Positions 19,682 to 32,817 of a stretch of DNA of 64,000 nt are shown piece by piece. A program made the translations under genes and the position numbers. This stretch comes from a virus: IMG/VR virus record IMGVR_UViG_3300023296_000874, positions 95,594 to 159,593 of that record. One strand, written 5' to 3'. Within the stretch, counting starts at the first letter, position 1. The number at the start of each line of letters is the position of its first letter. Under the pieces are notes generated by a model, which had not been told where the DNA came from, did no database searches, and saw only the letters and a program-made list of their open reading frames with translations.

Positions 19682-20356
19682 CTACTCCGAATTACTGCTC
19701 TCATGGATTTCGTAGGACAACTCTCCAAGCTTCAAGGCAGTCTTCTGGATCTCGGCCCGAAGGGATTTCAGTTGGCGGTCCTGTCCATCGAGTAGGGGGC
19801 CGTAGCCGGAGAGGAGCTCAAGTTCGTGAGCGATACCTCCGATGCCTCTGTGGAGCCAGTTGACAGAATCCTTGAAGTGGGTTTCGTAGTACCTATCGCC
19901 GCCGCGCGAGTGTTTGGCTGAAGTCACAGCCTTGTCAGCAGCAGTCGTGCCCCCACCGAGCATTCCTGAAATGTCTCCGAGTCCCGAGTCGAGGTCCTCA
20001 ATGGCATCTTGTACCGCCACGATCTCAGAGTGGAAGGCGTCCATGGCACTGGAGCCTCCCATCTCGTCCGGTAGCTTATCAAACTCTTCAGTCACGTCAC
20101 CGAGCGCGTCGGTAAGTCGGCTCATGGCACGCTTGAAGTGCTTGCGGTAGATCGGGTCCGACGAGGCCTGCACCGTCCGCGCAAGGCGGCTGATGTTGTC
20201 AGAAAGGCTCGCCTTGAAGGTGTGGTCAGGCTTCATGTTCTTGTAGATTCCCATGATGTACGCATAGTTGCCGCCCTTGCCCGCTTCAGCAGCGATTTCC
20301 TTGGCACGGTCCCACTTGTGTTCGTCGCGGGGTGTGTCAACTACGCCACCGGGCAT
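19682..20356 (-). CDS. phage protein with N-terminal W-x-RAKEIA...YIMGIYKNM motif
   Basis: Residues 12-42 carry HKWDRAKEIAAEAGKGGNYA and YIMGIYKNMKPDH, a short helical module common at the ends of phage structural and maturation proteins. The rest is predicted helical with regular hydrophobic spacing (LSDNISRLARTVQ, MSRLTDALGDVTEEF, VVAVQDAIEDLD-like segments). AGGAGC precedes the ATG. The exact role is unknown; a virion or assembly role is inferred from its place between fibre and baseplate genes. Confidence 0.8.
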   Translation of the reverse strand: MPGGVVDTPRDEHKWDRAKEIAAEAGKGGNYAYIMGIYKNMKPDHTFKASLSDNISRLARTVQASSDPIYRKHFKRAMSRLTDALGDVTEEFDKLPDEMGGSSAMDAFHSEIVAVQDAIEDLDSGLGDISGMLGGGTTAADKAVTSAKHSRGGDRYYETHFKDSVNWLHRGIGGIAHELELLSGYGPLLDGQDRQLKSLRAEIQKTALKLGELSYEIHESSNSE

Positions 20357-20364
20357 GTCAGCTC

Positions 20365-20601
20365 CTACTTGTTTTCTTGGATGGAAGAGAACCTGTGCAA
20401 CGTCTTCCGCATGTCCTGCAGCCGGTCACGCGCCTTTTCGGGCGAGTAGCTCAGCAGAGCCAGAATCTCATCAACTTCCTTCACAAGAGGCTTCACAACT
20501 ACGGTCGGCTTGCCGGTGTCGCGGACGTCCATGTCCATGTAGCGAGCGCGGTCGGCAATGTAGGAGCGAGCAAGGAGGGAAATCTCAGCGGATGTGGTCA
20601 C
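20365..20601 (-). CDS. small helical protein, unknown function
   Basis: The 78-aa protein starts at GTG with GAGAGG about 8 nt upstream. It is charged and helical (ISLLARSYIADRARYMDMD, VKEVDEILALLSYSPEKARDRLQDMRKTL). It ends 8 nt before the next gene in the same orientation, suggesting co-translation. No family is recognised. Confidence 0.7.
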   Translation of the reverse strand: MTTSAEISLLARSYIADRARYMDMDVRDTGKPTVVVKPLVKEVDEILALLSYSPEKARDRLQDMRKTLHRFSSIQENK

Positions 20602-20617
20602 AATCGGTACCTCTCTA

Positions 20618-21223
20618 TCAGAAGGTCACGCGCCACACAAACGTCAGGGTCATGGAGCCTGGCTTGTTGATGACGTTGAAGTTGCGGACGTTGAGGAACG
20701 AGTCGTAGTTCCTACGGTCCACCGAGGGGTCATTCCAAGAGCCTTGAGCAATCGGAGTAGCCACAAGCGGCGGGGTGATGTCTACAGCGGCACACACGAT
20801 GCCCATCTCAACCAGAGGCCCTACGGCTTCAGACGTGCTGTACGTCACAGTGAAGTCGAGGATGTTGGTCGGGATGGCCGATGTGGAGCCACCAGCGTCG
20901 ATGAAGTCAATGGCACTGAACTGCTTGCGGTCGATCTCAGCGTAGAGGGAGCCCTGTGTGGCTGCCGCTGCTGGGACGCTCTGTAGGTCCCACCCGGCGT
21001 CCCCAGTTCCTACTGCGAGTGCAAACGCACCAGCCGAGGGCTCTGTAGGGTCAGCCACCAAACGGGCCACGAGGATGCTCGCGTCGTTGGTGATGACGTT
21101 CTTGCCGAGGTAGGTGAAGGCCTTCTTCTCACCCGGACGCTCCATCTTGTACCAGATCTGACCCGTGAAAGGGATCGACCGAGATACTTCAATGAGCGGG
21201 GGGTGTGCAAGCTGCTCAATCAT
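20618..21223 (-). CDS. tail-associated structural protein, unknown family
   Basis: The protein is taken from MIEQLAHPPLIEVS, because this ATG overlaps the end of the upstream 53-aa gene by 8 nt and the longer N-terminus to 21286 would be a shadow of that gene. The 201-aa chain is beta-rich with repeated strand pairs (FTYLGKNVITNDASILVARL, LDFTVTYSTSEAVGPLVEMG) and a C-terminal MTLTFVWRVTF. The pattern suits a small virion protein. Function is not recognisable. Confidence 0.75.
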   Translation of the reverse strand: MIEQLAHPPLIEVSRSIPFTGQIWYKMERPGEKKAFTYLGKNVITNDASILVARLVADPTEPSAGAFALAVGTGDAGWDLQSVPAAAATQGSLYAEIDRKQFSAIDFIDAGGSTSAIPTNILDFTVTYSTSEAVGPLVEMGIVCAAVDITPPLVATPIAQGSWNDPSVDRRNYDSFLNVRNFNVINKPGSMTLTFVWRVTF

Positions 21224-21377
21224 TGGTCTTCTTCTCTGGCTTTGGTTTTGTGTCTTCCTTGGCAGTGTAGCCCTGACGCAGGTCAACGTTCACGGCCTTG
21301 CCGTCCGGCTCTTGTAGCCTGACGACCATTACATCCGCACGGATGGGCTTCTGAAATCTGTCCGACGCTCTGGGCAT
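21216..21377 (-). CDS. 53-aa basic protein
   Basis: The start MPRASDRFQKPIR is chosen because GGGAG lies 6 nt upstream and the promoter motif at 21405 lies just beyond. The C-terminus is Lys/Glu-rich (DTKPKPEKKTND). It overlaps the next gene by 8 nt. It is the first gene of a new transcription unit. Function unknown. Confidence 0.65.
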   Translation of the reverse strand: MPRASDRFQKPIRADVMVVRLQEPDGKAVNVDLRQGYTAKEDTKPKPEKKTND

Positions 21378-21404
21378 GGTGTCTCCCAAGTGAACTGCCC
21401 CAGC

Positions 21405-21421
21405 TACAAACGGATTATGAC
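21405..21421 (-). promoter_or_regulatory. putative late promoter, copy 2
   Basis: Plus-strand TACAAACGGATTATGAC; on the minus strand GTCATAATCCGTTTGTA, 28 nt before the ATG at 21377. The minus-strand text TGTCATAAT resembles an extended -10 box, but no TTGACA-like -35 is visible at normal spacing. Confidence 0.6.
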
Positions 21422-21449
21422 AGCGAGGGAATCTGGCCGTCATACGGTC

Positions 21450-21881
21450 ATGCCACATGATGTCGACAAGCGTATCTGGGTTCTGACTGATGACGGCTCT
21501 GAGGAGCCGCCAGCAGACCTATTTCCTGAGGACGCCCCGGAATCGGCTCCTCAGGTAGAAACCATTCCTGACCGTTCGTATGGGGGTCCAATACCCCTGC
21601 AGCAGGGAGTAGCCTTGCCGGATGTGCCTACGACCAGGGTCACCATTCAGGGTCCCTACGCGGATGCTGTAGCGGCAGCTATCTTGATGCACGCGGCACC
21701 GGGGCTCAGGCTACAGTCGCAGGCCACTACGGAGGGGAGAGTGGACCTGCTGTTCGACACGAACTCGGACATGCTGTGGCGGGTGCTCAATGGGGAAGCA
21801 GTCGAGGACGAAGAGGCCGAAGCTGACTCGAACAGTGACGCGGTCAACCCTCCAGAGGATCCCTACGACATGTTCCTCTGA
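21450..21881 (+). CDS. acidic plus-strand protein, unknown function
   Basis: The frame is open from 21390 but its first part overlaps the promoter motif, so the ATG at 21450 (MPHDVDKRIWVLTDDG) is preferred; ATG 21417 is possible. Neither has a clear ribosome site. The 143-aa product is strongly acidic (EAVEDEEAEADSNSD near the end), with a central folded segment (TRVTIQGPYADAVAAAILMH) and ends PYDMFL. It fills the gap between two minus-strand genes and ends 2 nt from the convergent stop, which supports it being real. It looks like an inserted cargo gene. Confidence 0.65.
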   Translation: MPHDVDKRIWVLTDDGSEEPPADLFPEDAPESAPQVETIPDRSYGGPIPLQQGVALPDVPTTRVTIQGPYADAVAAAILMHAAPGLRLQSQATTEGRVDLLFDTNSDMLWRVLNGEAVEDEEAEADSNSDAVNPPEDPYDMFL

Positions 21882-21883
21882 TC

Positions 21884-23956
21884 CTACGGCGGTGAGCCCA
21901 GCACCAAGTCCCGCTCGTTTGAGGGAAGGTGGCTTGTGGTTGCTCCGAGGATCACCGTGATGTCACCCTCGTCATTCCAATGCCCCAGCAGCTCGTTGTT
22001 GAACAGGACGTCCGAGCCGTTGAAGTTGCTCTCGTTCATCACGAACATGCCGGTCAGATCGTAGCTCTCGCCTCGCCCTGTCTCGCCGCCGATGCCCAAG
22101 TTGGAGAGTGGGGAGTCTGTAATGGCTGCGGTGTCAAAGTCGTCGGAGTCAGGTACGGTCACTGAGGCTGTCTGCGTGAGCTGACATCCCTCTACTCCCT
22201 CGAAGTTGTTGAGCAGGTCCGTACCGTTGAGGTCGCTCTGGTTGAAGATGAACAGCCCATCTTCGTCGCAGAAGGGGATGCTCGGGAAGGTGAACGTCTC
22301 TTCCAAGCCGTCATCGATGCTCAGCCCAACGAGTCCATCGTCACAGGCCACATGGATGAGGCCTTCCTCTCCGGTCTCCGTCTTGGACAGGTTCAGAGGA
22401 GCGCTGAAGTGCTCGCCCGGTGTGAGGGTCACCCATGTCAGTGCTGGGTTCTCGGATGCTACTTCTTGAGGTGTGTCGCCGCCCCATGCAGAGGAACCCC
22501 AATCCACATCGCCGAAGGAGCCGTACTCGGAGAGGTCAATGCCGTCCTCAAGCTCGAACACCGGGTTGCCCGCGATCTTCGTCTCGACGATCGGTGTCCC
22601 TTCGTTCAGTGGGTGCTCGAGTCCGCTCGCATCGGTCTGGTCCGGAGATAGAACGTAGTTGGCCCAGTTGAGTACGTGACGGTGTCCGAAGATTCGGCCG
22701 TCCGTATCGCTGATCTGGTGCGGGGGCTCGTTCAGTACGAGGCGCGTGGGGTCGTTGAGGCCTGCGGTGTAGGCGGTCTCAAAGCCCTCGTAGCTCCAGT
22801 ACACCTGCTTCGGGTTGATGGCCTGTACGGAGTTGAGTACCCAACGTACCGGGAACTTCTCGTAGCCACCGCCCCAGATGGTCCGGCCCGGCTGGTTGAG
22901 CAGCAGTCCGAAGGAGGTGTTCTTCCAGTAGTTGTACTCGACAACTACCGTGTCTGAAGGGACCACGGGTGCCGACAGGGTGATGATGCCGGATGCACCA
23001 TCCACGTCCGCTACCGTCACGACGGTGCCGTTGACGGTGACTGTCACGTCGTCAGCGCCGCCGATGTTGGGGCTGGTGTCCGCGTCCGTGATGGGGCCGT
23101 TGGACGTGTAGATGAGTAGCCCCGCCATGCCCGAGAAGTCCTCGGTGACCGGGATGGCCTTGTTGACGCCCAAGCGGTCGCGGCCCTCTACTCCCTCACA
23201 GTACTTGCGTGCATCGTCGTAGTCGTGGTCCCAGATGTTCTCGGTCTTCACCGTGTCGTCGGCGTTCTTCACCAACTCCATCAGGTCAGTGAAGATGAAC
23301 CTGAGCACGTAGAGCGTGTGTGCGGGCTTCACCAGCTTGAGCAGGAAGTCCAGCTTGACGCTGATGTCCTGGAAGTTGCGGCTGATGTTCTCGGTGAGCT
23401 CGAAGTCCACCCGGAAGCCGAACTGATCGCTGATGTCAAAGGCGCTCAGCGGGTTGCGTGCGTCCTTGAAGTTCTCACTGAGCGTAACCACGCCCTCTTC
23501 GCCCACGAAGCGCTCGATGCCCGCCACGATGTTCGCGGGGGTGGATCCTCCGAAGAAGATCGCCACAAGCGACTGAACGAAGTCGCAGAACTCCTGGCTA
23601 CTGAAGATGCTGAGCTGAAGATTCTTGTTCAACGCCAGCATGGAGCCGAGCTTCTGGTAGGCCAGGTCAGCGCGGTTGTCGCAGTATGCCGGTGTGTTGA
23701 AGTAGGTGTCGCCCTCGAGGTCCTCAATCGCCAACCGGATGCGAGCGAACTCGATGGCGTAGGCCCGGAGTGCGATGGCGTAGTTGGGTCCGGTGATCGA
23801 GCTCTGGTAGTTGGAGGGGAGGACGTTGCGGAGATCCTTCTCAATCTCGAGCGACTTGTCCTTCAACCTTGTCCTAAAGACCTTGCCTTCCCGACCGACC
23901 TGGCTGAACGCCCGTCGGTTCCGGATGTCAAGTAGTCTGAAGAAATCAACGGCCAT
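21884..23956 (-). CDS. baseplate-type structural protein with inserted beta-sandwich module
   Basis: The first 250 residues of this 690-aa protein are helical (LRAYAIEFARIRLAIEDLEGD, YCDNRADLAYQKLGSML, LKLVKPAHTLYVLRFIF), reminiscent of tail protein I / wedge components. Residues about 275-350 form a small module (VTVTVNGTVVTVADVDGASG, ITLSAPVVPSDTVVVEYNYW) that also occurs twice in the tail sheath. The C-terminal half is acidic beta-rich sequence with repeated FIFNQSDLNGTDLLNN / MFVMNESNFNGSDVLFNN units. A strong promoter motif lies 40 nt upstream. A baseplate periphery role is inferred. Confidence 0.85.
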   Translation of the reverse strand: MAVDFFRLLDIRNRRAFSQVGREGKVFRTRLKDKSLEIEKDLRNVLPSNYQSSITGPNYAIALRAYAIEFARIRLAIEDLEGDTYFNTPAYCDNRADLAYQKLGSMLALNKNLQLSIFSSQEFCDFVQSLVAIFFGGSTPANIVAGIERFVGEEGVVTLSENFKDARNPLSAFDISDQFGFRVDFELTENISRNFQDISVKLDFLLKLVKPAHTLYVLRFIFTDLMELVKNADDTVKTENIWDHDYDDARKYCEGVEGRDRLGVNKAIPVTEDFSGMAGLLIYTSNGPITDADTSPNIGGADDVTVTVNGTVVTVADVDGASGIITLSAPVVPSDTVVVEYNYWKNTSFGLLLNQPGRTIWGGGYEKFPVRWVLNSVQAINPKQVYWSYEGFETAYTAGLNDPTRLVLNEPPHQISDTDGRIFGHRHVLNWANYVLSPDQTDASGLEHPLNEGTPIVETKIAGNPVFELEDGIDLSEYGSFGDVDWGSSAWGGDTPQEVASENPALTWVTLTPGEHFSAPLNLSKTETGEEGLIHVACDDGLVGLSIDDGLEETFTFPSIPFCDEDGLFIFNQSDLNGTDLLNNFEGVEGCQLTQTASVTVPDSDDFDTAAITDSPLSNLGIGGETGRGESYDLTGMFVMNESNFNGSDVLFNNELLGHWNDEGDITVILGATTSHLPSNERDLVLGSPP

Positions 23957-23995
23957 GTTCGGTCCTCTTATGGATCTGATCTGTCAAGCCTGACC

Positions 23996-24012
23996 TACAA
24001 ATGCAGTATGAC
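23996..24012 (-). promoter_or_regulatory. putative late promoter, copy 3
   Basis: Plus-strand TACAAATGCAGTATGAC; on the minus strand GTCATACTGCATTTGTA, 40 nt before the start at 23956. It sits in the divergent gap between the 690-aa gene and the plus-strand cargo island. Confidence 0.6.
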
Positions 24013-24075
24013 AGCATTTCCATTCTGACTTCCAGCACCACATCACCGTTATATGAGAAATCGGAGGAACGACAC

Positions 24076-24507
24076 ATGCCCAAAACCCTCGCCGTCTATG
24101 CAGGCGCATTCCTGACCTCCCGTGGCAAGACCGCGCTGCGCCTTTGGTGGCAAGCCAACGTCAGTCCGCTGGAGAGTAAGAGCTTCGGCCATCACATGAC
24201 CATCAAGTTCAAGCCCTCAGATGAGGAGCTGTACGAGTTGATGGAGCGCCTCGGTGGCGTAGGTGAGACCGTTCAGTTGCGCATCGTGGGCTACGCCGAG
24301 GACGCGGACCTGGGAGTGCAGGCGGTGGTTGTGGAAGGCGTCTACTCCACCAACGACAACCCCCACGTCACTGTCGCCACGGACGGAGCCAAGCCTTTCC
24401 TGAGCAACAAGCTCCTCAAGCGGGGCTATACCGACGTGCGCGGAGCCGCCCTCGAAGCTCGGCTCGGATACTTCGACGGACGCGCCGACCGCTTCGAGCT
24501 GCCTTAG
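24076..24507 (+). CDS. 2H phosphoesterase family protein
   Basis: The start MPKTLAVYAG has a good ribosome site (GGAGGAACGACAC before ATG). The 143-aa protein shows the two HxT motifs that define 2H phosphoesterases: HMT at H40/T42 (FGHHMTIKF) and HVT at H97/T99 (NPHVTVAT), 57 residues apart. The family includes RNA cyclic phosphodiesterases and ligases, fungal tRNA-ligase-type phosphodiesterases and the phage anti-CBASS enzyme Acb1, which cleaves cyclic nucleotide signals. Size fits any of these. It is the first gene of the plus-strand island. Substrate cannot be decided from sequence alone. Confidence 0.8.
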   Translation: MPKTLAVYAGAFLTSRGKTALRLWWQANVSPLESKSFGHHMTIKFKPSDEELYELMERLGGVGETVQLRIVGYAEDADLGVQAVVVEGVYSTNDNPHVTVATDGAKPFLSNKLLKRGYTDVRGAALEARLGYFDGRADRFELP

Positions 24508-24510
24508 TAT

Positions 24511-24545
24511 TCCACACTATCAACGGCTTTCCGTTGTAGAATGGA
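24511..24545 (+). terminator. stem-loop after the 2H phosphoesterase
   Basis: TCCACACTATCAACGG (24511-24526) pairs imperfectly with TCCGTTGTAGAATGGA (24530-24545) around a short loop, with two mismatches and one bulge. It starts 4 nt after the stop codon. No U-tract follows. It may end or stabilise the transcript, separating this gene from the next. Confidence 0.4.
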
Positions 24546-24677
24546 GTACTGGCATTCTGTCATCACACGAGAAGAGACTATTCCCACTCCCTGCGAAAAA
24601 GACGACCCCTTCCCTGAGAATACGGGCACATGGTCCGTTGAGTCTCTGAACCCCTTTCGGAGACCCAATACCCAACC

Positions 24678-25682
24678 ATGATACTCCTTGTAATCGCTGT
24701 AACCGCAGTTGTACTTGCCTCGGCGCTCTGCTCCGGCTCTGAAGCCGCCTTGATGGCAATGCCCAACGTGCGTGTTCGCCAGCTCGCGGAGGAAGGTGGC
24801 TCAACAGCCGCCATACTGCTCCGGTTGAAAGACAACCTCGACAGGCCCATTGCTGCCATCGTGGTTCTCAACAACATCGCCAACATCGTCGGCTCCATCG
24901 TGGTTGGTGGGATTGCTACTGACGTGCTCGGAAGTGCCTACCTCGGTGCCTTCTCAGCCGTGTTGACCTTCGCCATCATCCTCTTCGCAGAGATCATCCC
25001 CAAGAGCATCGGCACCAACTACCCGGAGCGCATCAGCCTCCTGATTGCACGACCGCTCAGTGCGATCTCGTGGTTGCTGACCCCGGCACTCTGGATGCTC
25101 GAACAGGTGACCAAGCTCATTGGCGGACCCAACGGTGCTACGGCAGCGGACGAGGCTACCTTGCGCTTCATGGTGCGGGAAGCCGGACGTGAGGACCAGA
25201 TTGAGGAGGATGAGCGCGACATGATCCTCCGGGTGTTCAGCCTCAACGACCTGACCGCCAGCGACATCATGACTCCCCGTACCGCGATGACCTACCTCCG
25301 CGCTGACCTGACTGCCAAGGAGCAGGAGGCCCAGATCAAGGCGTCACAGCACTCCCGCATCATCGTTGTGGGTGAGACGCTCGACGACGTGGTGGGCGTG
25401 GTGATGCTGAGGGACTTGCTCCTCTCGCTCATGAATGGCGGACTGCTACCGAAGCCTGTGCCTGCCGCCTTTGTCAGCCCCGACATGCCCGCCGATGAGC
25501 TCATGCGGCACTTCCTACCCGCGCGGAACCACATGGCTCTCGTGCGGGGAGAGTACGGCGCGGTACATGGCTTGGTGACCCTCGAGGACGTCCTTGAGAT
25601 CGTTGTTGGCGAAGAGATTGTTGACGAGACTGACCGTGACGACGACATGCAGGCTGTTGCACGGGACCGCGCTACATCCTGA
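24678..25682 (+). CDS. CNNM/CorB-type membrane protein: DUF21 plus CBS pair
   Basis: The N-terminal half is a DUF21 (CNNM) transmembrane domain: segments at about 2-22, 56-78, 90-110 and 122-142, with SGSEAA near residue 20, NNIANI near 66 and EIIPKSIG near 107, all typical of the family. A Bateman CBS pair follows (DLTASDIMTPRTAMTYL to GAVHGLVTLEDVLEIVVGEE, about 190-320). The protein stops at 334 aa, so the CorC/HlyC C-terminal domain of longer relatives is missing. Bacterial relatives export Mg2+/Co2+; some are labelled hemolysin-like. Its presence inside a phage late region is unusual. The ribosome site is distant (GGAG 16 nt upstream). Confidence 0.92.
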   Translation: MILLVIAVTAVVLASALCSGSEAALMAMPNVRVRQLAEEGGSTAAILLRLKDNLDRPIAAIVVLNNIANIVGSIVVGGIATDVLGSAYLGAFSAVLTFAIILFAEIIPKSIGTNYPERISLLIARPLSAISWLLTPALWMLEQVTKLIGGPNGATAADEATLRFMVREAGREDQIEEDERDMILRVFSLNDLTASDIMTPRTAMTYLRADLTAKEQEAQIKASQHSRIIVVGETLDDVVGVVMLRDLLLSLMNGGLLPKPVPAAFVSPDMPADELMRHFLPARNHMALVRGEYGAVHGLVTLEDVLEIVVGEEIVDETDRDDDMQAVARDRATS

Positions 25683-25738
25683 ATAGCCTCTGAGTGATCA
25701 GGCGCTCCGTCCGTTACCTGTGCAGCACGGAGCACAAC

Positions 25739-25960
25739 ATGGCCCTCGCCCAGCGACAAGACAGCACCACCGACCAGATCGAAACCGTCATCGAAGAGGC
25801 GCGCAAGCAGGACTTCCCCGTGGCATGGCTCGAGGACTGGGAAGACTGGACGCGCTCAGAGAGCGCGGACCTCGTGGGGTGCTACTGCATCATCGCTGAT
25901 GAGGCCGGGTGCTACGACGCCAAGGACGCCATCATGCGCAAGTGGGAAGCTGCCTCATGA
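25739..25960 (+). CDS. small acidic protein, unknown function
   Basis: The start MALAQRQDSTTDQIE is preferred over an upstream ATC-region start because GGAG lies 8 nt before it. The 73-aa product has a Trp-rich acidic segment (VAWLEDWEDWTRSESADLVG) and CYCIIADEAGCY. It overlaps the next gene by 4 nt (ATGA), so the two are translationally coupled. No family is recognised. Confidence 0.7.
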   Translation: MALAQRQDSTTDQIETVIEEARKQDFPVAWLEDWEDWTRSESADLVGCYCIIADEAGCYDAKDAIMRKWEAAS

Positions 25961-26244
25961 TCGGACGCACCATCACCTGCTACCCGATGGACGGGACCAA
26001 GCCCCAGTTCGAACTCGAAATCACGAACAGTGGGCGCGGGCTCATTGATCTTCGTGTCAAAGGGACAGGCGACGGTGTGAACTGGACCGGATTCCAGTTC
26101 GACGGCTACAACCGACCGCATCAGTTCAAACCCGAGTGGCTGCATACAGTCCGCTTCCACGGCTACCTCATCAAGGGCAGCGGCAAAAACCGCGACGTGA
26201 TGGAGGTGGACTTCTGGCTGAAGGAGATAGACAGTGCCGACTGA
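25957..26244 (+). CDS. small beta-rich protein, unknown function
   Basis: The 95-aa product starts MIGRTITCYPMDGTK at the ATGA overlap with its upstream neighbour and overlaps the radical SAM gene by 11 nt. It is predicted beta-rich (FELEITNSGRGLIDLRVKG, WTGFQFDGYNRPHQF) with a basic C-terminal part. Tight coupling on both sides suggests that it works with the radical SAM protein, perhaps as a partner or substrate; this is inference from layout only. Confidence 0.7.
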   Translation: MIGRTITCYPMDGTKPQFELEITNSGRGLIDLRVKGTGDGVNWTGFQFDGYNRPHQFKPEWLHTVRFHGYLIKGSGKNRDVMEVDFWLKEIDSAD

Positions 26245-27148
26245 GACCATCGCAAACCCCAACTTCAGCATCGTCCTACCCGGAGCCTGTCAGGCTCGTT
26301 GTGGGTTCTGCTATTGGAAACGCTCGGACAATGAGCTACGCCTCAAGGCGTGGGCATCTGAGCTGAACCGCGTGCTGGGAGCCCTGCCCCCACAGTTCAA
26401 GACCCTCTCCCTCACCGGAGGAGAGACTGTACTCAGCCCCTACCTCAAGCGTGCGCTGAGTGTGATCGAGCTCCACAAGGAGCGCTTCGACCGAGTGGTG
26501 CTGACCACCAACGGGGGGTCTCCCAAGAACTTCGACAAGCTGAGGGACCTGTTCGACGGGGTGGTGGACCACATCAACCTCTCACGTCACGCCCTCAACG
26601 AGCTTGAGAACCGTGCGGCCTTCGGAGACTGCAAGACCATCAACTGGGAAGAGACCGAGACCTTCTGCACCAAGATGGCTGAGGTTGGAATCGACGTGAC
26701 CATCAGCGCCGTGCTCGGCATCTGGTGGGGAGAGATGATCCTCGGAGAGTGGGTAGGAGCCGACAAGGCATACACCCGCGCATTCCTCGCCAAGTGCAAG
26801 AGCGTTGGAGCCGGAGCGGTATTCCTCCGCAAGCTTCACGGCACGCTCGACACTCACCCGTTGCAGGACAACTTCAGCGAAGAGGCCACGGTGGAGCATG
26901 GCTGCCCGACGTGCAAGGACTTCGTCATGACCATCGACGGGGTGCGCGTGCATTGGAAGTACAGCACGCTCGAGCCAAGCGATGATCTCGGCCTTGTGTA
27001 CGAGGTGATTCTGCAGCCCGACGGTAGGATGACTACCGGATGGACCACCGACGAGCCCTACGAGCTCCCAGTGCCCGAGCCAGTGCGGGCCTCGGTGGCA
27101 AGCTCTACATCAGGGTGCGGAGGTACTACTCGGAGCTGCGGTAGCTGA
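26234..27148 (+). CDS. radical SAM protein, probably frameshifted near its C-terminus
   Basis: The 304-aa frame starts at GTG with GGAGA 6 nt upstream. It shows the 4Fe-4S/AdoMet signature CQARCGFC (C19, C23, C26), the GGE motif (LTGGETVLSP) and LTTNG. A second Cys pair (CPTC) lies near residue 224. Substrate is unknown; it is not clearly QueE or viperin. The last 22 codons have atypical third positions, whereas another frame reads GLGGKLYIRVRRYYSELR and stops at 27144, with high GC at third positions. One extra G in the GGG run at 27087-27089 would join the two, so a real indel, a sequencing error or programmed slippage is likely. Confidence 0.88.
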   Translation: MPTETIANPNFSIVLPGACQARCGFCYWKRSDNELRLKAWASELNRVLGALPPQFKTLSLTGGETVLSPYLKRALSVIELHKERFDRVVLTTNGGSPKNFDKLRDLFDGVVDHINLSRHALNELENRAAFGDCKTINWEETETFCTKMAEVGIDVTISAVLGIWWGEMILGEWVGADKAYTRAFLAKCKSVGAGAVFLRKLHGTLDTHPLQDNFSEEATVEHGCPTCKDFVMTIDGVRVHWKYSTLEPSDDLGLVYEVILQPDGRMTTGWTTDEPYELPVPEPVRASVASSTSGCGGTTRSCGS

Positions 27149-30100
27149 TCAGAAATCGTTGCCGTACTCATCGCCCGTGCCGGTGTAGGTCATCTGCACC
27201 TGGCCGAGTGTGAGGTACTCCATCACGAAAGCCTCAATGTCACCCGTGCCGCTCTCGCCATCAACGATGTAGGAAGCCGCCCAGGTGTGGTCCTCAGGCG
27301 TTTCTCCCTTCGGCAAACTCACCAACACGCGGTTCGCTGTCACAATGCCAGCATCCAACAGCAAACCGCCCAGGCCGCAGTCACATACGTCGAAGCCCAA
27401 ACGTCCAACGATCAGAGCGGAGCCGGGGTTGCTCTCCAGCTCGCAGAAGTCGCTCTCAAGCTCAAACAGCGTCATCGGCTGGTCGTCCATGAAGACGCCA
27501 CGGTGAAGTGTGTTGGGTCCTCCACCCGTTGAGGTGTTGAAGGTGAGCTGCTGGTTGATGAGCCACACGTCCGCTTCCTGTCCCTCAACTACCTTTGTGG
27601 AGTCGGAGTCCAGAGCGTCACGGAGGATCAGGGAGCCGTCGCTCTTGTGCATCAGGGTGAGTGGGAGCACCACGTAGCTCACCTCATTCACTTCCTCGAT
27701 GGCGTGGATCACATCCGATTGGTGCAGATCCTCTCCAATCTGGAGACGGTTCACGAGGTGGGAGAGGTTGGTGCGGATGTCAATGTCCACGTCCGCCTGA
27801 TCTGCATTGTCCTTGAGCACTACGGTCGCCGAGATCTCCACCTCGTTCTCAATGCTCTGCTTCACCAGCACATCCGCCGTCACATGCCGCATCACGTCCA
27901 CCTTGGCGGCTACGAGCTGGAGCACGTTGTTCACGGAGTAGGATACGGTGAAGTTCTCCTCAGCCGTGTAGGCCACAATCACCTTCTCACCGTTGAGAAT
28001 GGTGCCTGACTCGTTGCGGGCGATCTTCGGAGCCGTGGTTAGGTCTCCTCCGGTGAGGAACACGTCGGGTGTTGCAGAATCCCCCTGGTCGGTGGTGTAG
28101 GTGACGGTGCCCGCCGTGTTGGTGATCACGATGGTCGTCTCGTCGACGCCTACAGATCCGAGCTTGACGGAGGTGCTGCCTACGAGCACTACACCCTCGT
28201 CCGTCACCGTGGTCGGGTCGCCTGTGGGAACCCCGTTCGCCTGTACCACGTTGATCTGGTCGCTGGCCTCAACGGAGTAGCCGAACAGGAGTGGGTCTTC
28301 GGTCTTGCTGAGCGAGTAGTTCTCCGTGGTCAACGTGCTTGCAGAGCTTGTGATGCCGGAGATATCTCGGATGGGTTGCACTACGGGCTCGAACGGATCG
28401 CTGTCCCGGTACTTGTAGTCGCCGATGAGGATGTCATCTTCATCCACATCAGGCTGAGGAATGTTCACGTCAAGCTGGATGGTGCGGTAGTCCGTGATCG
28501 TCACGCCGCTCAGGTCAAAGTCCTGTCCCGTAGAAGTGTTCCTCAGCCCGTAGCCCAAGGAAGCATCGTTCAGCATGGCGAAGATCGGAGTGGCCTCGGT
28601 CACTGCGGCAGAAGTCGTCCGGAAGGTCAGGAGCGAGGCCTCGCCCACTGCTTCAAAACGCACGTTGAGGTCTTGGAGGTACTGGAAGGCAAAGGTCTCC
28701 TGCACCTCGATGATTGCCGTGCCCTGGATCCAGAGGTCCACCTTGCCGCCGATGTGCTTCTCACGTACATCGTCCCAGTCCCGCATCATCAGGCTCTCAC
28801 CCGCTTCCTCAACACGGGCGCGGTGTACGCCGGAGGTGTCAAGTGCCGTGCGGAGGTAGCCTCCTGAGGTGCCACGGTCCACACTGACGTAGGAGAGCAT
28901 GGCTCGCTCAGCGAGACTGAGGTTGCTCTCCTGATCCTGTCCAAAGGTGGTGGCCTCGTTGTTGACGACACTGCTGAACCCGGAGGCTGAGGTAGATGTG
29001 ATGGCTCCCGCCGCCACGTTTCCCGTCGCCCCTGCGGTCACGGCAGAGATGGAGACGGTCAGCTCGTAGAAGCCCGTGTTCGCGTTGAAATACGAGCTAC
29101 CATTGGCCGCTGACATGGTCTTGCTCGCAGAGGTCACGAAACTCTGCGAGCTGGTGCCCGCAGCGCTATCTCCTCGGCTTGTCAGTGTGGTGCCCGCATC
29201 CACAACCAAGTCCTTACTCGGGGCCGACGTCCGGCGCATGACGGCCTGTCCGATGGCCTTGGTTGCTCCCATACGCTCAGTGAGCGAGTTCATGGCGAGC
29301 TTGGTGAACGTCTCGTCGATGAGCGTCTGCACCTCAGCTTCGGTCAGAGCTACCGCAAGGGCGAGTGCCTGCTTGTAGTTCGATTCCTTGTAGGCGATGC
29401 TGGTGCCCGTCTGCTGAGGGTCATCGATCTGAATGAGCGTCAGGAAGCTCTGGGCTCGGCTCATGAAGTCGATGAGCAGCCAGATGCGGTTCATCTCCCA
29501 CGCGGGCGGGTCTACGTGGATGTCACGGGTCACTGAGCCGGGGCGCACATCGATGTTCGACTGAACCCTGAGGATCTCGGTGATGAGTCCCTGCTGGATG
29601 GTGTTCAGGTTGCGGGGCGTGAGGTCCTTGACCCGCGTGCTCAGCACCAACGGCAGTCCTACAAGCTCACTCGAGAAGGTGCTCTCGTACTCAATGGCCA
29701 GGCTTGGGTCGTAGGCCAATGCCGTAGCGACGTAGTAGATCTCCTGGGTCAGTGCGATAGGGCTGAACAGAGCCTGCGCCGCATCCTGCTGCGGGTAGTC
29801 CGTCGCTGTGGAGTCGTTGGCGCGGACGTGGTTGAAGGCGTACACGTAGAACTTGTTCAGGGTCTGAACGTTGATGCTCGTGTCGATGATGACGTTGCTG
29901 TCGTCTGGGTCCACTTCTCGGTCGGTGGTTTCCACCGTGGACACTACCTTCTCCACCACCTCTTTGTAGTCATCTACGAGGCGGGTGTTGAGCAGTGTGT
30001 AGCCCGCAAGTCCGCCACCCGGCTCGGAAGCTGAGTAGAAGTTGAATCCTACGGTCATCGTGTCGCGCTCTACATCAGCGAGCAGCACGTCCTCAATGTG

Positions 30101-30613
30101 GGTAGCCAGGAACTCCACGCGGTTCGCGTACCGGTCAATCTTGATGCCGGTTGGTGCGTCAATGAGGAACCCAAGGGAGCCGTCAGAGACGTAATGAATG
30201 GTGAGCGTAGCTGCCGTGCTGAGGGAGCCGTCGTACCCTTCCGCCTGGATGAGGAAGACGTTCTGCCCCTCCACAAGCTGCGGGTTCGAGGGAAGTGTCA
30301 AGCTCCACTCGCCATCTGAGAGTACAATGCCGCCTGTTGACCCTGTCGAACCGGTGGATCCGGTAGAGCCCGTGGTGCCCGTAGTCCCGGTACCTCCGGT
30401 TGTACCAGTGGTGCCAGAGCTTCCATCATCGAGCGGGAAGGCGTTGAAGTCCATCCCAGCGTCACTGCCGTTGGCGAGGACTCGCTTGGTCAGTTCATCC
30501 GCTGTGCCCGTGATGGTCTGGCTGAATGCGTTGGTCGAGTACAGGACCGTCGTATCCGAACCAGTGCCGTGGGGCTTGTGGATCTGAGGGATTGTTGGAG
30601 TTTCGTTTGCCAT
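27149..30613 (-). CDS. baseplate wedge protein, Baseplate_J / gp6-like
   Basis: The 1154-aa protein has a J-like core around residues 440-700: an assembly region (VDAGTTLTS, VTAGATGNVAAGAI, NLSLAERAMLSYVSVDRGTSGGYLRTAL) typical of P2 gpJ/T4 gp6-type wedge proteins. A Gly-x-Thr/Ser run occupies residues 64-95. The C-terminal part is beta-rich. In contractile tails this protein forms the ring that holds the baseplate together and triggers sheath contraction. The 3' end abuts the convergent radical SAM gene with no gap. It starts 3 nt after the gp25-like gene. Confidence 0.85.
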   Translation of the reverse strand: MANETPTIPQIHKPHGTGSDTTVLYSTNAFSQTITGTADELTKRVLANGSDAGMDFNAFPLDDGSSGTTGTTGGTGTTGTTGSTGSTGSTGSTGGIVLSDGEWSLTLPSNPQLVEGQNVFLIQAEGYDGSLSTAATLTIHYVSDGSLGFLIDAPTGIKIDRYANRVEFLATHIEDVLLADVERDTMTVGFNFYSASEPGGGLAGYTLLNTRLVDDYKEVVEKVVSTVETTDREVDPDDSNVIIDTSINVQTLNKFYVYAFNHVRANDSTATDYPQQDAAQALFSPIALTQEIYYVATALAYDPSLAIEYESTFSSELVGLPLVLSTRVKDLTPRNLNTIQQGLITEILRVQSNIDVRPGSVTRDIHVDPPAWEMNRIWLLIDFMSRAQSFLTLIQIDDPQQTGTSIAYKESNYKQALALAVALTEAEVQTLIDETFTKLAMNSLTERMGATKAIGQAVMRRTSAPSKDLVVDAGTTLTSRGDSAAGTSSQSFVTSASKTMSAANGSSYFNANTGFYELTVSISAVTAGATGNVAAGAITSTSASGFSSVVNNEATTFGQDQESNLSLAERAMLSYVSVDRGTSGGYLRTALDTSGVHRARVEEAGESLMMRDWDDVREKHIGGKVDLWIQGTAIIEVQETFAFQYLQDLNVRFEAVGEASLLTFRTTSAAVTEATPIFAMLNDASLGYGLRNTSTGQDFDLSGVTITDYRTIQLDVNIPQPDVDEDDILIGDYKYRDSDPFEPVVQPIRDISGITSSASTLTTENYSLSKTEDPLLFGYSVEASDQINVVQANGVPTGDPTTVTDEGVVLVGSTSVKLGSVGVDETTIVITNTAGTVTYTTDQGDSATPDVFLTGGDLTTAPKIARNESGTILNGEKVIVAYTAEENFTVSYSVNNVLQLVAAKVDVMRHVTADVLVKQSIENEVEISATVVLKDNADQADVDIDIRTNLSHLVNRLQIGEDLHQSDVIHAIEEVNEVSYVVLPLTLMHKSDGSLILRDALDSDSTKVVEGQEADVWLINQQLTFNTSTGGGPNTLHRGVFMDDQPMTLFELESDFCELESNPGSALIVGRLGFDVCDCGLGGLLLDAGIVTANRVLVSLPKGETPEDHTWAASYIVDGESGTGDIEAFVMEYLTLGQVQMTYTGTGDEYGNDF
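30329..30424 (-). repeat. collagen-like Gly-x-Thr/Ser repeat in the J-like protein
   Basis: The coding sequence for residues 64-95 encodes tandem GTT/GST triplets (GTTGTTGGTGTTG..., GSTGSTGSTGSTGG). A shorter run of the same kind (GSTGTTGSTG) is present in the tail sheath. Such runs may form a flexible linker or trimeric collagen-like stem. Confidence 0.75.
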
Positions 30614-30616
30614 GTA

Positions 30617-31432
30617 TCACCCGCTACGCTGGAACCTCGTATCCAAAGCACCCTGCTGAGGGGTGTTGTATACGAGGGACACTGGATCCGGAAGTGCGAC
30701 CGTGGTGTCTACGGTCACGATCTCGGCGGATCGATTTGTGAATGCAATCTGGATATTGAAGGCGGTCGGTTCCAAGGTGTCTTGCTGCACCTGGAGCTTG
30801 AGAAGCGTGCCGAACCGCTCCCTGGGATCAACGGATGCCCCGCTGATGCTCAGGAGTGCTCTCATCTGCTTTGTCTGAGTGTCGGTGTACCGGCGAATAG
30901 CCACACGGATATCGGATTCCATCTTGGAGCGAATGATCGCTGCGTTCGTCACCTTTGATCCAATGAGGGACGGAATGCTTGTGCCGTACCAACGGTGGAA
31001 GGGGTTGGAACTGATGGCCGTCAGTACGATCTTCTTCATGTCCTGTACGAGCTTCTTCTCGTTGCGGACGGTGAGGAGGGTCCCGTTGATGTTGTACCGG
31101 TAATCGTGCTCCATCCGCAGCCCGTGACAACGGCGGCACTCAGAGGATCTGGTGTAGTAGGTGAGCTCGTAGAACTCATCCGTGGCGCGGCGTAGGCTGC
31201 GGAACTGAACAAGCCGGGCGGTGGGGTCAAGTGAGGAGGCGTCACGTACCAACCGGAAGCCGTAAGTGGTGTTGCCCACGTCCGTTACCAGGAACCCGTT
31301 GATCTTGAGTTCCACCTGACTGTTCGCAAGGGGTCGGAGCGTCTTGACCGTGCGCAAGTCATTCTCAATGGTGGACACTTCGTCCACCACCAGATGCGTG
31401 CAAACCTGCTCGATTTTGAGTTCCTGGGTCAC
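30617..31432 (-). CDS. baseplate wedge protein, gp25/GPW-like
   Basis: Residues about 125-160 read KKLVQDMKKIVLTAISSN followed by PFHRWYGTSIPSLIG, matching the T4 gp25/lambdoid gpW-type lysozyme-like wedge core. A CRRCHG knuckle (near residue 98) precedes it, as in related proteins of large myoviruses. The 271-aa length is about twice T4 gp25 because of N- and C-terminal extensions. GTG start; it overlaps its upstream neighbour by 4 nt (GTGA). The gp25-J neighbour order supports the assignment. Confidence 0.65.
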   Translation of the reverse strand: MTQELKIEQVCTHLVVDEVSTIENDLRTVKTLRPLANSQVELKINGFLVTDVGNTTYGFRLVRDASSLDPTARLVQFRSLRRATDEFYELTYYTRSSECRRCHGLRMEHDYRYNINGTLLTVRNEKKLVQDMKKIVLTAISSNPFHRWYGTSIPSLIGSKVTNAAIIRSKMESDIRVAIRRYTDTQTKQMRALLSISGASVDPRERFGTLLKLQVQQDTLEPTAFNIQIAFTNRSAEIVTVDTTVALPDPVSLVYNTPQQGALDTRFQRSG

Positions 31433-32817
31433 CGCAGTCTCCAGAGAGCGCCGTCGTTGAAATACTGGACGTTCATGTCCAAGTGTAGGTGGTCGCCAGT
31501 CTTGTGGGTGGATTCGTGAGCGTACTCGTTGTAGAACGAGCGGATGTACCCCCGCCTCACTCCGAGTGCGCCAATGGCGGCTGCGAGCTCAGGCAGCGTG
31601 AGGTTCGTCCGGTCCTCGTCCTCTCCGATCAGGTCAAACACCAGGTCGATAGCGTTGCCAGTGAAGTGGGCAACGCCGCCGTGGTTTGCCGTCGGGGGCC
31701 AGGCCTCGGTGACACGGAATGCGATGCTGTAGGTGGAGTATACTTCAGAGGCGAAGTTGGCGAGATCAGCGGCTACGTTGGGAGGTGCATAGAACAGGCC
31801 CGATTCATCTCCACCCGATCCGGTAGGGTTCCTGAACAGTGCAACGCTCGTAGGGATCTCAACCATCACTCCGGTCTTGAATCCGTACTCATACACGTTG
31901 GCAACGAGCTGACGTTTGCGCCGTGGGATGTTGGCGAAGGACACATCAGGGAACTCACCATCGAGCTCTGAAAGGTCGCCGGGGTCAGAGGAGTCCGTGA
32001 CGTCCGATAGGATCTGCAAGCCTACATCAGAAGGCACGAGCTGTCCGCGTACCTGATCCTGCTCGTCGTCGTCGGACTCAGCCACGGGAGCCAAGAGCAG
32101 GTCGTAGATGCGCTCAATGTCGTCGGGGGAGGTGACGTCCGTCTTGAGATCCACTCCGGCGCTTGGGTAGTCAGATTCGGTGCGTACCACCCCGTCGGCC
32201 CCGGTCACTTCCACCTCATTCGTCAGGAACGCGGTGACGGCAGCCATTTCTTCGGTGTACCGAAGAAGCATGGTCTTCTTGCGGTCGATCTCGTCATTGA
32301 GTGCCAGGTATCGATACCTGAGCTTCGCAACTCGGTCCTCAAGCTGGTCTGCGCGCTTGCCTACGCCCCGGAACTCCTGCACGATCTCAAGGGAGCGCTG
32401 AGCGGGAACTGCGTCATCATCGGGGATGCCGTCCATTTTATCAGACTGGAGGTCGCCAACCTGTAGGAGTCGAGGCTCGGAGCGCCATGCGGTGTCGCCG
32501 TGAGATAGGTTCCCGGTGAGGCTGTCGTAGCGCATGGGGAACTGGCTATCGGTTGCGCCGTCATGTAGCGCGGAGATCTCGGTGCCCGGCACAAAGGAGG
32601 GCACCGTCACAGTGTGTAGGCTGTAGGTGCGTCCACACACTTCAGCGGTGATCTCAAAACTCTCTGCCGCGTCCTTTAGCACCTCAGACCCGAGCCGGTC
32701 CCTCTTCGCCTCAAGAGTCGCAATCACCCCTGGAAGCGAGTGAACCTGTGCGTTCAGGAACGCATTGCGTTCGAGGAGCTGGTTCCGAGTGAATGTTCCG
32801 AGGTAATCGTAAGGCAT
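31429..32817 (-). CDS. tail protein with C-terminal M15-like peptidase domain
   Basis: The first 200 residues contain coiled coil (LEDRVAKLRYRYLALNDEID) and an acidic linker. The C-terminal 130 residues resemble a D-Ala-D-Ala carboxypeptidase/M15 fold with H384 and D391 in AHFTGNAIDL and H443/H445 in GDHLHLDM. These would be the zinc ligands and catalytic residues. Sited at the start of the wedge operon, it is probably a virion-associated lysin that opens peptidoglycan during entry. AGGGGGAG precedes the ATG, and promoter copy 4 lies 14 nt upstream. Confidence 0.8.
   Translation of the reverse strand: MPYDYLGTFTRNQLLERNAFLNAQVHSLPGVIATLEAKRDRLGSEVLKDAAESFEITAEVCGRTYSLHTVTVPSFVPGTEISALHDGATDSQFPMRYDSLTGNLSHGDTAWRSEPRLLQVGDLQSDKMDGIPDDDAVPAQRSLEIVQEFRGVGKRADQLEDRVAKLRYRYLALNDEIDRKKTMLLRYTEEMAAVTAFLTNEVEVTGADGVVRTESDYPSAGVDLKTDVTSPDDIERIYDLLLAPVAESDDDEQDQVRGQLVPSDVGLQILSDVTDSSDPGDLSELDGEFPDVSFANIPRRKRQLVANVYEYGFKTGVMVEIPTSVALFRNPTGSGGDESGLFYAPPNVAADLANFASEVYSTYSIAFRVTEAWPPTANHGGVAHFTGNAIDLVFDLIGEDEDRTNLTLPELAAAIGALGVRRGYIRSFYNEYAHESTHKTGDHLHLDMNVQYFNDGALWRLR

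What the first reader, a model, noticed from the sequence alone, without database searches (positions are those of the whole stretch)
24076..27148. Plus-strand cargo island: 2H phosphoesterase, CNNM membrane protein, two small ORFs, radical SAM enzyme
A compact cassette lies between two baseplate operons in the opposite orientation. It combines a 2H phosphoesterase, a CNNM/CorB-like membrane protein, two small unknown proteins and a radical SAM enzyme; the last three genes overlap by 4-11 nt. None is structural. A signal-cleaving phosphoesterase beside an ion-transport protein and a radical SAM enzyme could act against host defence or on host metabolism. This is the best candidate for an undescribed system in the window.
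Basis: partly seen in the sequence, partly recalled or inferred. Interest (0 to 1): 0.75.

Follow-up and report, generated by a model that had tools for sequence, protein, structure and literature searches.

The report
Five-gene cargo insert in jumbo phage
A large bacterial virus carries five extra, non-structural genes slipped between two tail-building genes that normally touch; one probably helps mend cut RNA, one looks like an intact magnesium transporter, and one belongs to a little-studied family of radical enzymes, but nothing shows that the five form a conserved system.

Summary
Window 24076-27148 carries five plus-strand genes: 2H phosphoesterase (A), CNNM/CorB (B), two orphans (C, D) and a radical SAM enzyme (E). 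In all seven related loci with both flanks readable, the baseplate-J gene abuts the next gene, or only a GIY-YIG endonuclease-like ORF intervenes. So this is an insertion inside one operon. A-E together were seen only in this 257.5-kb phage record (B-E also in one identical contig), so a conserved anti-defence system is not supported. A is best read as an RNA-end-healing cyclic phosphodiesterase: its model matches CNPase (Z 11.4) and fungal tRNA ligase (10.4) better than Acb1 (6.4); a PolyA_pol nucleotidyltransferase lies beside or fused to its relatives in 5 of 11 records; and this phage encodes kinase-phosphatase, RNA ligase and PolyA_pol elsewhere. B keeps the CorB magnesium-site side chains. 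E is a MoaA/viperin/SPASM-like radical SAM enzyme of unknown substrate; its relatives in Erwinia-type jumbo phages end in repeated Cys-x-aromatic motifs (56 of 64 tail cysteines), which the window protein lacks. That is the most curious lead.

The parts
23957..27148 (+). whole inserted island (3,192 bp) between two genes that abut in relatives
   Evidence: bpJ and gpX homologues overlap or lie a few nt apart in L004/L009, L005 and L011, and by the match position also in L008 (cut contig); L006/L007 carry a GIY-YIG/NUMOD3 ORF there
23957..24075 (.). 119-bp divergent spacer, presumed site of the island's promoter (no sigma-70-type site found)
24076..24507 (+). gene A, 143-aa 2H phosphoesterase with two HxT motifs (H40-M-T42, H97-V-T99), CNPase/Trl1-CPD-like predicted fold
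   Evidence: relatives
24508..24677 (+). 170-nt A-B spacer with two strong predicted hairpins, one after the A stop, one just before the B start
   Evidence: z -3.57, 0 of 200 shuffles as stable; 2 of 60 random windows of this genome score as low; no Rfam match there
24678..25682 (+). gene B, 334-aa CNNM/CorB membrane protein (CNNM domain plus CBS pair; no CorC C-terminal domain reported)
25739..25960 (+). gene C, 73-aa orphan
   Evidence: no Pfam match; PHROGs best E 0.09; no match in the phage collection; only the identical contig in viral contigs
25957..26244 (+). gene D, 95-aa orphan, overlaps C by 4 nt
   Evidence: no match; only the identical contig in viral contigs
26234..27148 (+). gene E, 304-aa radical SAM enzyme (C19xxxC23xxC26, GGE 62-64, C224/C227 and tail C295/C302), overlaps D by 11 nt; its stop abuts the bpJ stop
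21884..23956 (-). left flank gpX, baseplate-type gene (weak Mu Gp48 match, below cut-off)
27149..30613 (-). right flank bpJ, baseplate-J / baseplate wedge subunit

Best explanation
The island is a composite cargo ('moron'-type) insertion in the junction between the baseplate-J gene and gpX, read from its own plus-strand signals. The five genes serve separate host-takeover purposes rather than one pathway. Gene A is a 2',3'-cyclic phosphodiesterase that works like the CNPase/Trl1 branch: it opens the cyclic phosphate left when host RNases cut tRNA or other RNA, so that the phage's own kinase-phosphatase, RNA ligase and poly(A)/CCA-type nucleotidyltransferase, encoded elsewhere in the genome, can trim, refill and seal the break. 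Gene B is an intact CorB-type magnesium transporter that adjusts Mg2+ in the infected cell. C-D-E is a translationally coupled unit around a MoaA/viperin/SPASM-like radical SAM enzyme whose substrate, nucleotide/RNA or small protein, is unknown. Shown: gene structure, insertion relative to relatives, families, conserved catalytic or ion-site residues, presence of the other repair genes. Inferred: catalytic activities, cooperation in trans, Mg2+ direction, promoter, timing.
For: Insertion. A: both H-x-(T/S) motifs kept in a 10-row alignment; VIA-align Z 11.4 to CNPase (rmsd 2.9, 130 aligned) and 10.4 to the fungal RNA kinase/CPD 6u05 (rmsd 3.3, 128 aligned), against 6.4 for Acb1 and 5.5 for LigT. 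Relatives pass the tRNA_lig_CPD cut-off in 3 of 6 scanned (L080, L084, L086). L079 is one 1550-aa protein with a region 47% identical to A, then PolyA_pol and HAD_SAK_1 ('Swiss Army Knife RNA repair') domains. PolyA_pol is present in 5 of 11 A-family records, and in all five it is fused to or next to the 2H gene (for L081 judged from the position; L080 and L081 give equal match values and are probably one phage). This phage encodes AAA_33+PNK3P, RNA_ligase PF09414 and PolyA_pol, all over cut-off. B: MtCorB Ser21, Ser25, Ser71 (Asn in bacteria), Glu111 and Pro114 correspond to S15, S19, N65, E105 and P108, mapped by hand with PMC8242095 passages. E. The RNA-repair role of 2H enzymes in jumbo phages is proposed in PMC7824862, section 21, and PMC9503650, passages.
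Against: A itself stays below the Pfam cut-off (19.9 bits against 23); the AF2 model is moderate (pLDDT 74.7) and Foldseek alone gave no match at E 0.001 or better (best 0.004, CNPase). In L086 (and L085) the 2H-type domain sits in a 1592-aa topoisomerase-IB protein, and in L082 beside a portal-like gene, so some relatives may be packaged proteins acting on something else. 6 of 11 A-family records show no PolyA_pol, though all six are contigs of 15-61 kb. No KptA/Tpt1 in this phage and no tRNA genes, so the 2'-phosphate that a Trl1-type CPDase leaves has no known phage enzyme to remove it. No promoter was identified. A and B are 170 nt apart, so one transcript is unproven.
Confidence: 0.55

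Rival explanations
1. One integrated anti-defence cassette: A degrades a host cyclic-nucleotide alarm (Acb1-like), B counters membrane or ion effectors, and C-D-E neutralise another defence.
For: Co-orientation and overlaps; Acb1 is in the fold list at Z 6.4; 2H domains are discussed as possible counter-signalling factors in PMC9503650 passages.
Against: The set was not found together elsewhere; CNPase/Trl1-type structures outrank Acb1 by about 4-5 Z units; no defence-library match for A-D at E 1.
Confidence: 0.12
2. C-D-E is a peptide-modification (RiPP-like) unit: E, a SPASM/twitch-like radical SAM enzyme, modifies C or D, or its own Cys-bearing tail.
For: C-D-E overlap; the E model matches SuiB (15.2), SkfB (14.9) and PqqE (14.3) nearly as well as MoaA (16.7); C holds a close group of three cysteines; the E relatives of other phages end in Cys-x-aromatic repeats, 56 of 64 tail Cys, 4.2 expected.
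Against: No named maturase family reached its cut-off; full SPASM cysteine set not seen; window E has no Cys-x-aromatic in its tail (0 of 2) and the tail is modelled with low confidence; 73- and 95-aa partners are long for precursors (recalled); no C- or D-like ORF at E 1 in 20 loci of E relatives.
Confidence: 0.15
3. E acts on nucleotides or tRNA and belongs to the same RNA-repair theme as A.
For: In Erwinia/Yersinia-type jumbo-phage loci a Tpt1/KptA gene ends about 0.06-0.9 kb upstream of the E relative in 16 of 18 loci; whole-record PF01885 search finds it in 5 of 7 records searched. Tpt1 is better kept than most neighbours, and the most diverged locus L032 keeps it while losing many others. 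Tpt1 acts after a 2H CPDase (PMC9503650 passage). MoaA and viperin act on nucleotides (folds; substrates partly recalled).
Against: Control on 16 loci: Tpt1 in 14, but 2 of 22 other L014 genes and 4 of 22 other L013 genes are kept in at least 14 too, so shared descent may explain it; L028 and L029 lack Tpt1 in their records, one a 72-kb fragment; no Tpt1 in this phage; A and E are not adjacent here.
Confidence: 0.15

Closest known systems
CNPase / Trl1-type cyclic phosphodiesterase (2H superfamily)
   Same: two HxT motifs, best structural match of the A model, RNA-repair neighbours or fusions in some relatives
   Different: free-standing 143-aa phage protein, below the Pfam cut-off, not beside its presumed partners in this genome
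Acb1 anti-CBASS 2H nuclease
   Same: 2H-type fold, small phage protein
   Different: lower fold similarity (Z 6.4 against 11.4); no sequence match reported
CNNM/CorB magnesium transporters (e.g. MtCorB 7m1t)
   Same: transmembrane domain with Mg-site residues, CBS pair
   Different: phage-borne; no CorC/HlyC C-terminal domain reported; CNNM-type genes also occur in Lak megaphages without A, C, D or E nearby
Radical SAM family of Erwinia/Yersinia/Dickeya jumbo phages (annotated 'hypothetical protein' or 'putative radical SAM superfamily protein')
   Same: CxxxCxxC, H-x-N-x-S core, Cys pair C224/C227, H-x-DG-type C-terminal motif with W270, tail cysteines; 21-25% identity
   Different: those relatives have an aromatic after most tail cysteines, a Tpt1 neighbour in most loci, and often an N-terminal extension
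Viperin / MoaA / SPASM-twitch radical SAM enzymes
   Same: overall predicted fold (Z about 14-17)
   Different: far below curated cut-offs of every named family reported

Membership tests
2H phosphoesterase superfamily | two H-x-(T/S) motifs on a 2H fold | tested here: met
   H40, T42, H97 invariant and T99 in at least 90% of 10 rows (Ser in one); model matches CNPase Z 11.4
CNPase/Trl1-type CPDase | sequence match over the tRNA_lig_CPD cut-off | tested here: not met
   19.9 bits against 23 for A; of six relatives scanned, L080 25.0, L084 28.5 and L086 26.1 pass, L079, L082 and L089 do not. A is described as working like this family, not filed in it
CNPase/Trl1-type CPDase | hydrolysis of RNA 2',3'-cyclic phosphate to 2'-phosphate | not testable with these tools
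   needs assay
Acb1 | cleavage of cyclic (oligo)nucleotide immune signals | not testable with these tools
   fold listed at Z 6.4 only
CNNM/CorB | CNNM transmembrane domain plus CBS pair | tested here: met
   CNNM 146.3 bits (cut-off 28.4), CBS 39.8 (cut-off 24), two stretches
CNNM/CorB | Mg-coordinating side chains and pi-helix E-x-x-P-K | tested here: met
   mapped by hand: S15, S19, N65, E105, P108, K109
Radical SAM superfamily | CxxxCxxC and GGE in an AdoMet-radical core over cut-off | tested here: met
Viperin (NF038283) | curated whole-protein cut-off 180 bits | tested here: not met
   30.8 bits
MoaA (TIGR02666) | curated whole-protein cut-off 284 bits | tested here: not met
   28.1 bits
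RiPP radical SAM maturase (SPASM) | full SPASM cysteine set and adjacent recognised precursor | tested here: inconclusive
   two extra conserved Cys pairs; C and D unclassified
A conserved multi-gene phage system | gene set recurs together in other genomes | tested here: not met
   no two of the five found together except in the identical contig (B-E); reach limited, as single-protein scans find close relatives only and several records are fragments

The most novel reading that the evidence does not exclude
E belongs to a phage radical SAM family, shared by unrelated jumbo phages, that uses a tethered cysteine tail as a built-in substrate or as extra cluster ligands. In the Erwinia-type branch, 56 of 64 tail cysteines are Cys-x-Phe/Tyr, echoing the C-x-F step inside the enzyme's own CxxxCxxC motif. 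In this phage the enzyme is coupled to two small partner proteins, and it may be tied to phage tRNA rescue, sharing an island with a 2H cyclic phosphodiesterase here and lying near Tpt1 in most of the other phages.
Probability: 0.1. Interest if true: 0.7.

Novelty: new member of a known kind. Interest (0 to 1): 0.33.

Why it matters
It shows that a junction inside a baseplate operon of a jumbo-phage group can take up cargo: five genes here, a homing-endonuclease-like gene in a relative. It supports a four-part RNA-repair kit spread over one phage genome in which no tRNA gene was found. It also points to an uncharacterised phage radical SAM family with an unusual repeated cysteine tail. If the tail is a substrate or a cluster site, that would be a new mode for radical SAM enzymes; otherwise the finding is an ordinary but well-documented case of phage auxiliary genes.

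Tried and rejected
Rejected: (1) one conserved system (see membership test). (2) Acb1 as first choice for A: lower fold score, no sequence match reported; this does not exclude it. (3) E as viperin: the best PADLOC match is pVip, 5e-10, but NCBIfam gives 30.8 bits against a cut-off of 180. (4) A-B spacer as a known riboswitch: no Rfam match there in window 20000-31500 (the one hit at E below 5 was a snoRNA model at 27147-27200, minus strand, E 0.41, below its gathering score). Its stability is unusual but not unique (2 of 60 random windows as low). (5) Shared upstream motif with other genes: only 10- to 11-mers shared with one or two other genes, taken as chance. (6) Tpt1-E linkage as functional proof: the neighbour control leaves shared descent open. 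(7) C- or D-like ORFs near E relatives: none at E 1 in 20 loci. (8) E on plasmids: none at 1e-5. (9) DNA-level relatives of the island in the phage collection: one 30-bp match.

Limits: the search for related loci with a single protein reaches close relatives only, so searches do not exclude remote relatives of B, C or D. No metagenome scan was available. The host is unknown. In one search no record matched A; the only record of this phage in it, the identical contig, ends before A, so that zero has no positive control. tRNA genes lying across the cut points of the record's stretches could be missed. In the neighbour control I gave 24 genes from each of L013 and L014 and left out several short or cut annotated genes. 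Searches used a wrong frame for C (25740); it was repeated correctly, but not for NCBIfam.
Full report
What is there. The window is bases 95594-159593 of a 257,533-bp virus record. ORFs, sequence and codon usage confirm five plus-strand genes at 24076-27148: A 24076-24507, B 24678-25682, C 25739-25960, D 25957-26244, E 26234-27148. C and D overlap by 4 nt, D and E by 11 nt, and the stop of E abuts the stop of the minus-strand baseplate-J gene. A and B are 170 nt apart, B and C 56 nt. The other four plus-strand runs called inside the minus-strand block at about 89-170 kb of the record are single genes. The five score like the rest of the phage in codon usage (0.20-0.33 per residue for the called ORFs against quartiles 0.21-0.37).

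An insertion, not a gap between operons. Searching viral contigs with the baseplate-J protein gave eight loci, one of them an identical contig (L003); the phage collection gave five records, of which I opened two, a megaphage record (L011) and Tunturi_5 (L012). In L004 and L009 (same match values, probably one phage), L005 and L011 the J gene and the gpX homologue overlap or lie a few nt apart; in L008, cut by its contig end, the match position fits the same. In L006 and L007 (same match values) one ORF with NUMOD3 and GIY-YIG matches over cut-off lies between them. L010 is truncated and in L012 no gpX homologue was detected, so neither counts. The flanks are therefore neighbours, and the window's phage has 3,192 extra bases there.

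The gene set is not seen elsewhere. Of ten records behind these loci, only the identical contig carries B or E; A was found in none, that contig ending before A. Two of the ten are under 20 kb. Scans of viral contigs with B, C and D returned only the identical contig; with A, eleven other loci; with an E alignment, the identical contig and 16 others, several with the same lengths as phages. tblastn across all loci then held showed none with two of A-E except this phage and the identical contig. Two Lak-phage CNNM loci (11 kb each) hold no A, C, D or E.

Gene A. Ten aligned sequences keep H40, T42 and H97, with T99 in at least 90%. The AF2 model (pLDDT 74.7) matches mouse CNPase at Z 11.4 (rmsd 2.9, 130 aligned) and the fungal RNA kinase/CPD 6u05 at 10.4, then drops to Acb1 6.4 and LigT 5.5; plain Foldseek gave CNPase first, at E 0.004, with nothing at 0.001 or better. 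A itself is below the tRNA_lig_CPD cut-off; of six relatives scanned, L080, L084 and L086 pass it and L079, L082 and L089 do not. L079 encodes one protein with a region 47% identical to A, a PolyA_pol and a HAD_SAK_1 domain. In L080, L084 and L089 the 2H gene directly follows a PolyA_pol gene. PolyA_pol was found in 5 of 11 A-family records, counting L081, which gave the same match values as L080. The other six records are contigs of 15-61 kb. Against a pure RNA-repair view, L086 joins the domain to a topoisomerase-IB core and L082 has it next to a portal-like gene (portal assignment is my reading).

The rest of an RNA-repair kit is in the same genome: AAA_33+PNK3P (L094:9352-10323), RNA_ligase PF09414 (L098:9892-10914) and PolyA_pol (L099:608-1822), all over cut-off. 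No tRNA genes were found and no Tpt1/KptA. Whether the PolyA_pol protein adds CCA or poly(A) was not tested. The role of 2H enzymes, kinase-phosphatases, RNA ligases and CCA enzymes against host tRNA cleavage in jumbo phages is described in PMC7824862 (section 21 read whole; passages) and PMC9503650 (passages). So A is a new member of a known theme.

Gene B has CNNM and CBS domains well over cut-offs, and phmmer aligns it to MtCorB 7m1t over residues 3-311 (E 3e-37). The Mg2+-coordinating side chains named in PMC8242095 (passages) are kept: S15, S19, N65 (Asn is the bacterial form) and E105, followed by P108-K109. It could well be a working transporter; direction and purpose are inference. The same phage carries what looks like an ABC importer, so membrane cargo is in character.

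Gene E is the only PF04055 match in the record. Its relatives in Erwinia, Yersinia and Dickeya phages (48 records, one of them 'Dulem') share 21-25% identity with it. Invariant positions in 18 rows include C19, C23, C26, G62, E64, N115, S117, E257, D263, G264 and W270. The AF2 model (pLDDT 74.3, low confidence in the tail) is nearest to MoaA (16.7), a tetraether-lipid synthase (16.4), SuiB and viperin-like enzymes (about 15) and SkfB (14.9). That class includes nucleotide and peptide enzymes, so the fold does not choose. All named-family cut-offs are missed.

Two leads on E. First, in 16 of 18 Erwinia/Yersinia-type loci (several closely related) a Tpt1/KptA gene lies about 0.06-0.9 kb upstream of E's relative. 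In a neighbour control on 16 of these loci Tpt1 was present in 14, while 2 of 22 other L014 genes and 4 of 22 other L013 genes were present in at least 14. So Tpt1 is better kept than most neighbours, but shared descent may be enough; the most diverged locus L032 keeps Tpt1 while losing many others. Second, the tails: after the conserved W, all 18 relatives have a linker of variable length and 2-4 cysteines. 56 of 64 of these are Cys-x-Phe/Tyr, against 4.2 expected from shuffling each tail. The sequences are related, so this is not 18 independent cases. The window protein has two tail cysteines and no such motif (0 of 2), and L034 and L035 have no tail cysteine. Searches of the paper library for 'radical SAM' with viperin/jumbo phage, KptA or Erwinia were seen as listings, plus one passage naming a 'Radical SAM superfamily protein' in PMC6143709; I saw no description of this tail in those outputs, which is not proof of absence.

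Verdict. A real, well-formed cargo insertion with three recognisable enzymes or transporters and two orphans; an ordinary kind of thing for jumbo phages, with one curious enzyme family. The anti-defence 'system' reading is not supported by co-occurrence.

Noticed in passing
L013, L014, L018-L033, C-termini of the E relatives (e.g. L013:5992-7131): Jumbo-phage radical SAM proteins end in a variable linker plus repeated Cys-x-Phe/Tyr motifs (56 of 64 tail Cys in 18 proteins).
   Followed up: partly
L079:89-4741: A 1550-aa phage protein combines an A-like 2H region, a PolyA_pol nucleotidyltransferase and a HAD_SAK_1 RNA-repair domain.
   Followed up: partly
L086:6699-11477 (also L085): A 1592-aa protein next to a portal-like gene fuses a type IB topoisomerase core with a 2H-type domain.
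   Followed up: no
window 24508-24677: The A-B spacer folds into two strong hairpins, one just before the CNNM start codon; possible attenuator or processing site.
   Followed up: partly
L097:12384-15795 (record bases about 171.4-174.8 kb): The same phage encodes what looks like a whole ABC importer: an NMT1-like binding protein fused to OmpA, a permease and an ATPase.
   Followed up: no
L094:56-937: DUF1848 protein, E 4.8e-32; I recall this family as radical-SAM-like, but the PF04055 search of the record did not report it.
   Followed up: no
L006:13240-13953 and 15337-16185: Two GIY-YIG/NUMOD3 endonuclease-like genes in the corresponding baseplate region of a relative, one at the junction used by the island.
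   Followed up: partly
L098:12579-14189: The phage carries a full Glu/Gln-type tRNA synthetase though no tRNA gene was found in the record.
   Followed up: no
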